Below are positions 18,417 to 21,689 of a DNA stretch of 64,000 nt, one piece after another. The translations under genes and the position numbers were made by a program. Location: NCBI RefSeq assembly GCF_027359375.1, contig NZ_CP114779.1, forward strand, positions 310,001-374,000, read 5' to 3'. The notes beneath the pieces were generated by a model. The model searched no databases, was not told where the DNA came from, and saw only the letters and a program-made list of their open reading frames with translations. This DNA comes from Prochlorococcus marinus str. MIT 0919 (lineage in GTDB: Bacteria > Cyanobacteriota > Cyanobacteriia > PCC-6307 > Cyanobiaceae). Numbering within the stretch: position 1 is the first letter of the stretch; the number at the start of each line of letters is the position of its first letter.

Positions 18417-18563
18417 ATGAAGCTACAGATCTTTTTAATTCAGCTTTCTATCCCCACCTATTTCGTGGTGTACGGTAGTATCGGATTTATTCTTAAAGCC
18501 AGAAATTCTGGCTTTAATAAATGGTCATCAAACCATGAGCGAAGAAGGTGTAGCACAATTTAA
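18417..18563 (+). CDS. Possible 48-residue single-span membrane protein
   Basis: ATG at 18417 opens a frame whose first 30 residues form one hydrophobic span (FLIQLSIPTYFVVYGSIGFI), followed by a basic tail containing KARNSGFNKW. The C-terminus overlaps the first 29 bases of the Rieske gene in another frame. Composition is typical of a small thylakoid or inner-membrane peptide, but random frames in AT-rich DNA can also look hydrophobic. It is offered as a candidate, possibly a leader that couples to the oxygenase. Confidence 0.35.
   Translation: MKLQIFLIQLSIPTYFVVYGSIGFILKARNSGFNKWSSNHERRRCSTI
18495..18515 (+). promoter_or_regulatory. Hairpin in the leader of the Rieske gene
   Basis: An 8-base perfect inverted repeat AAAGCCAG / CTGGCTTT with an AAATT loop ends 20 bases before the Rieske ATG. 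No T run follows on either strand, so an ordinary terminator is unlikely. It may shape the leader or act as an operator. Confidence 0.4.
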
Positions 18564-19872
18564 AAAGGTCAACATTGGAACACAAAAATCCATAGATAAA
18601 ACTCTATCGGGATCAAATAATCAGAAAAGGTTAGAAGTTAACTCATCAAAGCCAAATAATCAATTAAAGAATGGACTATTAGGCTGGTATGCCGTTTGTA
18701 CTACAACGCAATTAAAAGACGGAAATAAACCTTATTTTTTTACTATGTATAATGAGCCCTTAATTATATATAGAGATAAAGAAAGTAATCTTAGATGCGT
18801 AAAGGATCTATGTCCTCACAGAGGCGCCTCATTTATCGATGGTGAGGTAGTTAATGGAGAACTAGTCTGTCCATATCATGGAGCACGCTTTTCGTCCAAC
18901 GGTGAATGTACCAATCTAAGCAGAATAACTTGTAATCATATTGTAGACGAAAATTATGATAACTACGCTTCAAAGATTCACTTATATCAATATATATGCA
19001 AGGAGGTAAGCAACTATATCTATATATATTATACAGGAAGAGCTAAGACAAATTTAAGCGAGTTTGATGTAAAAGATAGTTTAGAATCCCGTTTAATAGA
19101 TTCTTATGGATTTAAAGAGAATGATTATGCTTATGAAGAGGTAAGTGTCGACTTTAAATGTGATTGGGCGAGGATTATCGAAAATCATCTTGATATCCTG
19201 CATTTATTTTGGGTTCATGGAGATACAATTCCAGATAATGATGTAAATAGGGAAGTTATTACAAGTTTCAATCAAGAAATCACCAAAGAGAAAGATCAGA
19301 TTGAAAGTAAATATAAGTATAAGGATAAACAAAAAGGTGAATTTATTAGAATAAAATTTCTACCTCCTGGAAGAATAGTCATTTATAAGGGAGAACCTAA
19401 GGATTCTAGGTATATACAAGTCTTAGATCATATCCCACTTTCAAAGAATCAATCCAGAGTCATAGTAAGACATTATCGTAAGTTTATGAAAAATAAAGTG
19501 CTTACTAACATATTACTCTTTAGGCAACTTCAACACAGAGTATTTTATAAAGTATTTTCAGAGGATTATATGATTTTAAGAACTCAGACCTATAATAATC
19601 AGATGGGTTATGTAGAAAAAGATAATGTTAAATTGTTAGGTGAAGATAAAATGGTTCAATACTATTGGGATTGGTTCAAAAATTCAACGGCTATAGATCA
19701 ACCCTGGCAATTACATCCAACAAACGCAGATACTAATACTGTGTTTCAGGACATATCAATGTTGTATCCACCAGCGAACACAAAGCTAGATAAACAAAAC
19801 AAAATAGATATATATGCAAATCTTCTTCTAAGGTTACTAATACCGATAGGTCTTATTATATTAATTCTTTAA
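18535..19872 (+). CDS. Rieske oxygenase of the pheophorbide/chlorophyllide oxygenase family
   Basis: The protein has 445 residues. A Rieske 2Fe-2S motif is complete: C93-P-H95, 16 residues, C112-P-Y-H115. The mononuclear iron site follows as N217-H-L-D220-I-L-H223-x4-H228. One hydrophobic segment at the extreme C-terminus (LLLRLLIPIGLIILI) would anchor it in the thylakoid. Family members oxidise chlorophyll derivatives (chlorophyllide a oxygenase, pheophorbide a oxygenase) or related ring systems. Prochlorococcus is known to make chlorophyll b with a divergent enzyme of this type, and this gene lies between two antenna genes, so it is a candidate for that role. That is inference, and other paralogues may exist. 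Its stop overlaps the start of a 34-codon gene (TAATG). Confidence 0.85.
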   Translation: MSEEGVAQFKKVNIGTQKSIDKTLSGSNNQKRLEVNSSKPNNQLKNGLLGWYAVCTTTQLKDGNKPYFFTMYNEPLIIYRDKESNLRCVKDLCPHRGASFIDGEVVNGELVCPYHGARFSSNGECTNLSRITCNHIVDENYDNYASKIHLYQYICKEVSNYIYIYYTGRAKTNLSEFDVKDSLESRLIDSYGFKENDYAYEEVSVDFKCDWARIIENHLDILHLFWVHGDTIPDNDVNREVITSFNQEITKEKDQIESKYKYKDKQKGEFIRIKFLPPGRIVIYKGEPKDSRYIQVLDHIPLSKNQSRVIVRHYRKFMKNKVLTNILLFRQLQHRVFYKVFSEDYMILRTQTYNNQMGYVEKDNVKLLGEDKMVQYYWDWFKNSTAIDQPWQLHPTNADTNTVFQDISMLYPPANTKLDKQNKIDIYANLLLRLLIPIGLIILIL

Positions 19873-19976
19873 TGAGTCAAAATCGAAGGCCTGCCTGGCT
19901 TAATTGGCTCTACCTATTAATATTTTTATTTAGTAGTTGGCAATTATATATAATTTGGAGTCAAAGACTTTTATGA
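19872..19976 (+). CDS. 34-residue membrane mini-protein between oxygenase and ABC ATPase
   Basis: ATG at 19872 shares its A with the Rieske stop (TAATG), and the stop TGA overlaps the ABC ATPase start (ATGA at 19973-19976). The product opens MSQNRRPAWLNWLYLLIFLF, a short basic tryptophan-containing head followed by one membrane span, and ends IIWSQRLL. Exact overlaps at both ends strongly suggest a real, translationally coupled gene rather than a gap. The size and single span recall small thylakoid subunits, but I recognise no family. It may be a membrane partner of either neighbour. Confidence 0.65.
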   Translation: MSQNRRPAWLNWLYLLIFLFSSWQLYIIWSQRLL

Positions 19977-20761
19977 ATAAGTATTGGCTAGAGATAAAGA
20001 ACCTTGATTTAGAGTTTAACAACAAGACTATAATTAAAAATTTAGATTTAAAACTAGATTACAATCAGAATACTGCAATATTAGGCCCCAATGGTTCAGG
20101 AAAAAGCACATTAATAAGGGCAATTACAAAACTAAAGTATCCATTATATAAGAAAAGTTCCGAGATCAAAGTATGTGGTTCGACTAATTTGAATATCTGG
20201 GATTTCAGAAACAAAATTAATTTTTTGTTAACTGATATTCAGGATCGGATAAAAGAGAATTGTTTAGCGAAGGACGTAATACTTTCTGGTTTTCAAGGCA
20301 CTTTTGGACTTATTAATCCCGAACTGATAACATCTGATCATATATATACCTTAAATAATATTATAGAGACTCACCAATTGGAAATATCTGACAAATATTT
20401 TCGAGAACTATCCGATGGTTTAAAAAGGAGAGTATTACTAGCTAGATCAATAATAAATTCTCCAGATATACTTATTTTAGATGAGCCCACATCATTCTTG
20501 GATTTAAAATCTTTTTTTCAAATAATACTAATGCTAAATAAAATCTCTAGAAGTGGAATTTCCCTCTTATACACCACTAATTCTATTGGCTGCATATTAA
20601 ATGTCACACATAGAGTTATTCTTTTAAAAAAAGGAGTTATAATTGCCGACGATAAACCAGAAAAAGTGATAACATCAGACATTCTTAGTCATCTCTATGA
20701 TTATAATTTAGAAGTATCCAAAATCAATGGATTCTGGCATGCAACACCTGTTAATACCTAA
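19973..20761 (+). CDS. Stand-alone ABC transporter ATPase
   Basis: From the ATG at 19973 (MNKYWLEIKNLDLEFNNKT) the protein has 262 residues. Walker A GPNGSGKST, signature LSDGLKRRVLLARSI (with LSDG in place of LSGG) and Walker B LILDEPTSFLDL are all present, and the switch position carries TN rather than the usual histidine pair. An ATG 12 codons earlier lies inside the mini-gene and is rejected. No permease or binding-protein gene is adjacent. The substrate is unknown. The last bases overlap the convergent zinc-ribbon gene by 4. Confidence 0.9.
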   Translation: MNKYWLEIKNLDLEFNNKTIIKNLDLKLDYNQNTAILGPNGSGKSTLIRAITKLKYPLYKKSSEIKVCGSTNLNIWDFRNKINFLLTDIQDRIKENCLAKDVILSGFQGTFGLINPELITSDHIYTLNNIIETHQLEISDKYFRELSDGLKRRVLLARSIINSPDILILDEPTSFLDLKSFFQIILMLNKISRSGISLLYTTNSIGCILNVTHRVILLKKGVIIADDKPEKVITSDILSHLYDYNLEVSKINGFWHATPVNT

Positions 20762-20949
20762 GCAAGAATTATCAATATAAAGATTACAAAAAGCAGGATG
20801 AGACAAAAAAAGAGTTTTTTTGATCTGACAATCTTAATATCAGAAACTATATTTTTAGAACCGCAATTAGAACATATAAGCCTTCCTCCTAGAGCTCTGT
20901 CTGCTATTAATGTGTTAGAGCCACAATTTTGGCATCTTTTACCAGGCAT
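20758..20949 (-). CDS. Zinc-ribbon protein with C-terminal membrane anchor
   Basis: The 63 residues contain two CxxC knuckles (KRCQNCGS and LICSNCGSKN) spaced as in TFIIB-type zinc ribbons, then a basic stretch and a hydrophobic tail (KLFFCLILLFVIFILII) that would anchor it in a membrane with the ribbon in the cytoplasm. No enzyme activity is suggested. It follows the peroxiredoxin-like gene with a 2-base gap on the same strand, so the two are probably co-transcribed. Confidence 0.82.
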   Translation of the reverse strand: MPGKRCQNCGSNTLIADRALGGRLICSNCGSKNIVSDIKIVRSKKLFFCLILLFVIFILIILA

Positions 20950-20951
20950 AG

Positions 20952-21689
20952 TTAATTATTTAATATGTTATCAAGAAAAAATAATGGTCTTTGCATTCTT
21001 TCAGAGAAGTCTAAAAGTGCCTTAGATTTATATGAATATAAAATCTCATCTTTTTCTCCTATCAGGAAGGTGGCTCCTCTTTGAGTAATATCAGTAATAT
21101 TAGGTATATAGTCTGACCAATTGCTCAGAACTTCAATCATATTCATTAGACGTAATGATGAAAGCTCAAAGGGCCTAAGAGTTGACTTTTTGCTAATCAG
21201 CTTAAAATTTTTTGCCTTAAATTCAATTAATTTGCTAAAGCTTATAATGTCATCATCCCTAAAAAGTTTATTAGCATTATCGTCTCCAGTGTAACCTCTT
21301 ATTACTTCACGAATTGTTCCAGGTGATTTAATACCAGTACACATTAAAAGCAAATTTAAAAAAGGATAGCGAGTAAATTTCAATCCTTTTTCTAGGCCGA
21401 GCTTGTCATGAATATCGGCTTGGCTAACATTCCTGAGTCTAGATTTGGGAAATAAAGTATATTCCGAAAAACTGGCTTTTGCTTTTTCATCACCTATACC
21501 TACTACTAACATGTCTATCCCTGCTCTATCTATTGCATCAAGAAAGGGTACTAATGATTGCGCATACTCAATGCTATCAAAATCTCCAAAAACACCTAAA
21601 AGAATATATAGGTTTAATTTCGAGGAAATACTTTCTGGAAAAAATCCGCCAATGATTTCTTTAATTGCAGTACCAGATAAATTGTTCAA
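20952..21689 (-). CDS. Peroxiredoxin-like (AhpC/TSA-type) protein
   Basis: The frame gives 245 residues from a TTG at 21689; no ATG or GTG lies between it and an upstream in-frame stop, so TTG is the best start. The core LLGVFGDFDSIEYAQSLVPFL... followed by AGIDMLVVGIGDEKA looks like the cyanobacterial PRX-like branch of the AhpC/TSA fold, but the usual peroxidatic Cys motif is not seen at the matching position. A redox role is therefore uncertain. An acidic-to-basic C-terminal extension is of unknown purpose. It lies just upstream of the zinc-ribbon gene and is divergent from pcb. Confidence 0.68.
   Translation of the reverse strand: MNNLSGTAIKEIIGGFFPESISSKLNLYILLGVFGDFDSIEYAQSLVPFLDAIDRAGIDMLVVGIGDEKAKASFSEYTLFPKSRLRNVSQADIHDKLGLEKGLKFTRYPFLNLLLMCTGIKSPGTIREVIRGYTGDDNANKLFRDDDIISFSKLIEFKAKNFKLISKKSTLRPFELSSLRLMNMIEVLSNWSDYIPNITDITQRGATFLIGEKDEILYSYKSKALLDFSERMQRPLFFLDNILNN

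What the first reader, a model, noticed from the sequence alone, without database searches (positions are those of the whole stretch)
19872..19976. 34-codon membrane mini-gene locked between two genes by overlaps
The TAATG junction with the oxygenase and the ATGA junction with the ABC ATPase leave no spare base on either side. The product has a basic, Trp-containing head and one span. Such exact coupling is hard to get by chance. It would be missed by any length cut-off, and could be a membrane partner that gives the orphan ATPase or the oxygenase its anchor.
Basis: seen in the sequence. Interest (0 to 1): 0.7.

Follow-up and report, generated by a model that had tools for sequence, protein, structure and literature searches.

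The report
Conserved picocyanobacterial single-helix membrane microprotein
The 34-codon frame is a real gene for a one-helix membrane protein found, in a single copy, in almost all Prochlorococcus, Synechococcus and Cyanobium (family Cyanobiaceae) and in none of the other cyanobacteria sampled; it has no known family, and in Prochlorococcus it came to lie next to the probable chlorophyll b synthase gene.

Summary
The frame at 19872-19976 exists as described: ATG in TAATG with the Rieske oxygenase stop, stop in ATGA with the ABC ATPase start. It is a real gene. A 25-sequence profile finds one copy in 165 of 201 Cyanobiaceae genomes (122 of 130 good ones). A class-wide sample gives all 36 Cyanobiaceae and none of 255 other genomes. 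The core motif is RPAWLNWxFLxIFLWSSWQLxxFW; pooled dN/dS is about 0.1. No Pfam, NCBIfam, PHROG, PDB, phage or plasmid relative was found. AlphaFold gives one helix, residues 8-33.

The Rieske protein is very probably PcCAO, the Prochlorococcus chlorophyll b synthase, and carries its own C-terminal membrane tail. Synechococcus and Cyanobium keep the microprotein without PcCAO, unlinked to the ATPase. Inside Prochlorococcus the order PcCAO-microprotein-(flavodoxin)-ATPase is common, but spacing runs from 177 nt to an overlap, and three lineages hold the microprotein elsewhere. The exact lock is late compaction.

Best guess: an accessory or assembly subunit of a thylakoid complex, unnamed as far as I could check.

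The parts
19872..19976 (+). The microprotein gene: 34 codons plus stop, single-helix membrane protein with a basic, Trp-rich head
18535..19872 (+). Rieske oxygenase gene, 445 aa, very probably PcCAO (chlorophyll b synthase); own C-terminal hydrophobic tail at residues about 427-445
   Evidence: Pfam Rieske E 7e-21; only Rieske protein of the genome besides a 186-aa frame taken as PetC; close orthologues in only part of the family; tail
19973..20761 (+). ABC-type ATPase gene, 262 aa, start overlaps the microprotein stop; no permease gene evident beside it
   Evidence: Pfam ABC_tran E 8e-22; orthologues elsewhere
19870..19874 (+). TAATG junction: Rieske stop and microprotein start share one base
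   Evidence: same in near relatives only
19973..19976 (+). ATGA junction: ABC start overlaps microprotein stop by four bases

Best explanation
SHOWN: the frame is a genuine protein-coding gene for a 33-38 residue, single-helix membrane microprotein, single-copy and near-universal in Cyanobiaceae (alpha-cyanobacteria) and not detected outside them. INFERRED: it is an accessory or assembly subunit of a core membrane complex, most likely in the thylakoid. It would insert as one helix and pack through conserved intramembrane residues (N11, W12, L15, F18, S21, S22, Q24, L25, W29) against a larger integral subunit, as the many known 30-40 residue photosynthetic subunits do. In Prochlorococcus the gene became a neighbour of the chlorophyll b synthase gene PcCAO, with a flavodoxin and an orphan ATPase in several lineages. 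In streamlined lineages the junctions shrank to stop/start overlaps, so there it is probably translated by re-initiation on the PcCAO message. The overlaps give co-expression; they do not show that the neighbours are its partners.
For: Conserved frame in orthologous intervals; one copy in 122/130 good Cyanobiaceae genomes and in 36/36 against 0/255 other cyanobacteria; 294 relatives in GTDB contigs; dN/dS about 0.1 over 134 distinct DNA sequences; one confident helix; invariant polar and aromatic residues inside the span, as expected of a packed helix; kept although its place in the genome changed; present both with and without chlorophyll b synthase and with different neighbours.
Against: No homology to any known subunit of a solved complex, so the complex is unnamed. 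PDB holds no close match to the window's Pcb protein (best is IsiA), so the family's own complexes could not be checked. Location in the thylakoid rather than the plasma membrane is not shown. Some good genomes lack it, including all four sampled of genus g44. The one-face pattern of conservation is weak (p 0.04 at 100 degrees, not significant when angles are scanned).
Confidence: 0.55

Rival explanations
1. The microprotein is a dedicated partner of PcCAO (or of chlorophyll b delivery to Pcb antennae) in Prochlorococcus, recruited there from an older role.
For: Directly downstream of PcCAO in at least 72 of 83 loci; in genus g4, where it has left PcCAO, it lies between two pcb antenna genes; translational coupling in the streamlined lineages.
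Against: Present in Synechococcus and Cyanobium without PcCAO; PcCAO has its own membrane tail; separated from PcCAO in three lineages; the gene order may be inherited only.
Confidence: 0.17
2. A stress or regulatory membrane microprotein (for iron or light stress), acting like a small inhibitor or stabiliser and not a constitutive subunit.
For: Size and topology fit; linkage to flavodoxin, with pcb and ferritin-like genes near by, in several Prochlorococcus lineages.
Against: No match to a known stress family in Pfam or NCBIfam; one copy everywhere and no phage copy, unlike the multicopy, phage-borne Hlips (own knowledge); no iron- or light-related neighbours seen in Synechococcus contexts.
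Confidence: 0.18
3. The microprotein is the membrane partner of the ABC ATPase that it overlaps.
For: ATGA overlap or near contact in the window and HL-type clades; the ATPase has no permease beside it in the genomes looked at.
Against: The two are unlinked in Synechococcus types, in the MIT9313-sized genome and in g4 and g56; flavodoxin lies between them in many lineages; a single helix is not a transporter channel.
Confidence: 0.1
4. A chance open frame without a product.
For: Short length only.
Against: Family-wide conservation and dN/dS about 0.1.
Confidence: 0.005

Closest known systems
Small single-helix subunits of cyanobacterial photosynthetic complexes (PetN, PetL, PsaI, PsaJ, PsaM, Psb30, NdhP and others)
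   Same: Size of 30-40 residues, one span, short head and tail, deep conservation, single copy
   Different: No detectable sequence relation to any chain in the PDB or to a Pfam family; confined to Cyanobiaceae
Norf4 (Synechocystis small protein, 31 aa, one predicted span; PMC5126843)
   Same: Highly conserved membrane microprotein of unknown function in cyanobacteria
   Different: Reported as lacking in alpha-cyanobacteria, the very group that holds this one; sequences could not be compared
High-light-inducible proteins (Hlips)
   Same: Small one-helix thylakoid proteins frequent in Prochlorococcus
   Different: No ExxNxRxAM-type chlorophyll-binding motif seen; single copy; no phage copy
FixP_N, N-terminal helix of cbb3 oxidase FixP/CcoP (PF14715)
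   Same: Weak match of 5 of 25 members, best E 0.0083: similar Pro-Trp head before a helix
   Different: The window protein itself has no match; scores are marginal; taken as a shared membrane-interface head

Membership tests
Protein-coding gene (against chance ORF) | Frame kept and under purifying selection in relatives | tested here: met
Single-span membrane protein | One hydrophobic helix of about 20 residues | tested here: met
   (prediction only)
Known small photosynthetic subunit (PSI, PSII, b6f, NDH-1) | Sequence relation to a subunit of a solved complex | tested here: not met
   profile searches of PDB at E up to 10 found nothing relevant
Known small photosynthetic subunit (PSI, PSII, b6f, NDH-1) | Physical presence in the complex | not testable with these tools
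   needs proteomics
Hlip | Chlorophyll-binding motif and matching family model | tested here: not met
   no Pfam or NCBIfam match; motif not seen in A1/A2
Dedicated PcCAO or ABC ATPase partner | Co-occurs only with the partner | tested here: not met
   present without PcCAO and unlinked to the ATPase in Synechococcus types
PcCAO (for the Rieske neighbour) | Prochlorococcus-type Rieske oxygenase absent from Synechococcus, sole candidate in the genome | tested here: met
   described as Prochlorococcus-specific in PMC10284923 and PMC3441193
PcCAO (for the Rieske neighbour) | Sequence identity with the protein of Satoh and Tanaka 2006, or chlorophyll b formation | not tested
   paper not held; no reference sequence at hand
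Norf4 | Sequence similarity | tested here: inconclusive
   Norf4 sequence not recovered

The most novel reading that the evidence does not exclude
An unrecognised core subunit or assembly factor of a photosynthetic complex (photosystem, b6f or NDH-1) that is specific to the alpha-cyanobacteria, the ocean's most abundant phototrophs, possibly standing in for a small protein used by other cyanobacteria (such as Norf4, whose reported range is the reverse).
Probability: 0.3. Interest if true: 0.75.

Novelty: new member of a known kind. Interest (0 to 1): 0.52.

Why it matters
Prochlorococcus and marine Synechococcus do a large share of ocean photosynthesis, yet a strongly selected, near-universal membrane microprotein of theirs has no family in Pfam or NCBIfam and no counterpart in solved complexes. 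Its sharp confinement to the family marks it as part of what sets alpha-cyanobacteria apart. It is also a clean case of a gene that came to lie in the operon of a pigment enzyme and was then locked by overlaps, a warning against reading function from gene overlap alone.

Tried and rejected
Chance ORF: rejected by conservation and dN/dS. Anchor for the oxygenase: rejected as basic role (own tail; range). Partner of the ATPase: disfavoured by linkage. Known family: none in Pfam, NCBIfam, PHROGs or PDB. Phage-borne auxiliary gene: none in phages, viral contigs or plasmids. Relatives in other cyanobacterial families: only chance-level hits (none at E 0.005). Norf4 equivalence: Norf4 sequence could not be recovered from gap gene neighbourhoods, so untested. 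Literature by peptide strings or by locus tags guessed from memory: no paper. The Satoh and Tanaka PcCAO paper is not held. Searches failed through wrong coordinates of mine. Helix-face conservation: suggestive only. Shine-Dalgarno motifs: almost none in any context, so they neither support nor exclude re-initiation.

Full report
WHAT WAS CHECKED. The window lies in a 1,716,770-base single-contig genome. The mini-ORF is at 19872-19976 on the + strand. Its ATG shares one base with the TAA of the Rieske gene (18535-19872), and its TGA overlaps the ATG of the ABC ATPase gene (19973-20761) by four bases. The product is MSQNRRPAWLNWLYLLIFLFSSWQLYIIWSQRLL.

IT IS A GENE. The Rieske protein was used to collect orthologous loci. 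A frame with the motif RPxWxNWxxLxIFxxSSWQL follows the Rieske stop in nearly all of them. A profile of 25 such proteins (A1) finds a strong match, almost always a single one, in 165 of 201 Cyanobiaceae genomes and in 122 of 130 that are at least 90% complete. That includes many genomes without the Rieske gene. With a broader profile (A2) it is in all 36 Cyanobiaceae of a class-wide sample and in none of 255 other cyanobacteria at E 0.005. A pattern scan of GTDB contigs gives 294 relatives; the 80 fetched are named Prochlorococcus, Synechococcus, Cyanobium, Candidatus Synechococcus spongiarum, Vulcanococcus or unnamed cyanobacteria. Across the fetched loci there are 134 distinct DNA and 111 distinct core protein sequences. 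Pooled Nei-Gojobori values for pairs of at least 72% identity are dN 0.118 and dS 1.12. These pairs are not independent, but a ratio near 0.1 leaves no doubt about purifying selection. Some good genomes lack a match, among them all four sampled members of one genus (g44), so near-universal is the right word.

WHAT IT LOOKS LIKE. AlphaFold2 with 36 related sequences gives one helix, residues 8-33, at pLDDT about 94 in its middle. Invariant or nearly so are R6, P7, W9, N11, W12, L15, F18, S21, S22, Q24, L25 and W29. They fall loosely on one helix face (p 0.04 at 100 degrees, not significant when angles are scanned). There is no match in Pfam, NCBIfam, PHROGs or the PDB apart from marginal ones, of which the most repeated is FixP_N in a minority of members. 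Nothing was found in phages, viral contigs or plasmids. Hardly any member has a Shine-Dalgarno-like motif, whatever its context, so re-initiation after the Rieske stop is plausible in the overlapping forms but is not shown.

THE NEIGHBOURS. The Rieske protein is the only Rieske protein of the genome besides a 186-aa frame that I take to be PetC. Close orthologues occur only in a part of the family and not in the larger Synechococcus-type genomes. The literature calls PcCAO a Prochlorococcus-specific chlorophyll b synthase (PMC3441193; PMC10284923). I therefore take it to be PcCAO; the original paper (Satoh and Tanaka 2006) was not held, and no reference sequence was compared. It ends in its own hydrophobic tail, YANLLLRLLIPIGLIILIL, and a comparable C-terminal hydrophobic stretch is present in forms whose microprotein is elsewhere. 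The ABC ATPase has one orthologue per genome in 22 of 26 genomes tested, at unlinked places in Synechococcus types, with no permease evident beside it.

HOW THE CLUSTER AROSE. Of 83 Rieske loci (some of them the same genome fetched twice), at least 72 have the microprotein directly downstream; a few more use other start codons or were not counted by the script. The gap is zero (TAATG) in 13 loci near the window, 1-18 nt in other near relatives, mostly 2-7 nt in the HL-type clade, and 15-177 nt in deep lineages. In many deep lineages a flavodoxin gene sits between microprotein and ATPase. In genera g4 and g56 the ATPase follows the Rieske gene directly and the microprotein is elsewhere, in g4 between two pcb antenna genes. 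In the 2,410,873-base genome (the size of MIT9313) PcCAO, microprotein and ATPase are all apart, with the microprotein about 660 bases upstream of a flavodoxin gene. In several Synechococcus and Cyanobium genomes it lies near a 75-aa gene of unknown family and a gene that looks like a polyphosphate kinase 2. On a PcCAO tree the tight arrangement needs three changes and appears in two separated clades. The root is arbitrary, so one origin with losses is also possible. The exact lock is thus a late, lineage-bound compaction.

MECHANISM. Shown: a real, selected, single-helix membrane protein gene, confined to one family, whose linkage partners change. Inferred: an accessory or assembly subunit of a core membrane complex. 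I put 0.55 on this. The chief rivals are a stress or regulatory microprotein (0.18), a PcCAO partner (0.17) and an ATPase partner (0.10). A complementary range with Norf4, a 31-aa membrane microprotein reported as missing from alpha-cyanobacteria (PMC5126843), is a lead that I could not test.

VERDICT. Observation confirmed; gene real; anchor role not supported as basic function; a new family of a known kind (photosynthetic-type microproteins), with a useful open question. Whether some database already lists it as a hypothetical protein could not be checked here.

Noticed in passing
window 19973-20761 and 20761-20949; L186, L189, L193: The orphan ATPase gene converges on a small zinc-ribbon membrane protein gene, and this pair is kept in distant Prochlorococcus (including the MIT9313-sized genome), where PcCAO and the microprotein are not both present. 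It may be the ATPase's true partner.
   Followed up: partly
window 20952-21689 (-): A 245-aa AhpC/TSA-type protein stands between the zinc-ribbon gene and the second pcb gene, and similar proteins keep this place in L189, L190 and L193.
   Followed up: no
L013, L019, L022-L025, L027, L028, L031, L062: A flavodoxin gene lies just downstream of the microprotein in deep Prochlorococcus lineages and in the MIT9313-sized genome, but not in the window, where it has been lost from this place.
   Followed up: partly
L064 (genus g4): The relocated microprotein gene sits between two pcb antenna genes on the same strand.
   Followed up: partly
L068, L129, L131, L180 and others: A conserved 75-aa protein of unknown family (MSYEPGTSECRLLIDSK...) lies upstream of the microprotein in Synechococcus and Cyanobium; no Pfam match.
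   Followed up: partly
genomes of genus g44 (G044, G080, G104, G124): All four sampled members lack the microprotein, including one 98% complete, which may mark a true loss or a deep branch.
   Followed up: partly
L192 (MIT9313-sized genome): PcCAO of this lineage is a very long branch on the tree and carries an extension after its hydrophobic stretch.
   Followed up: no
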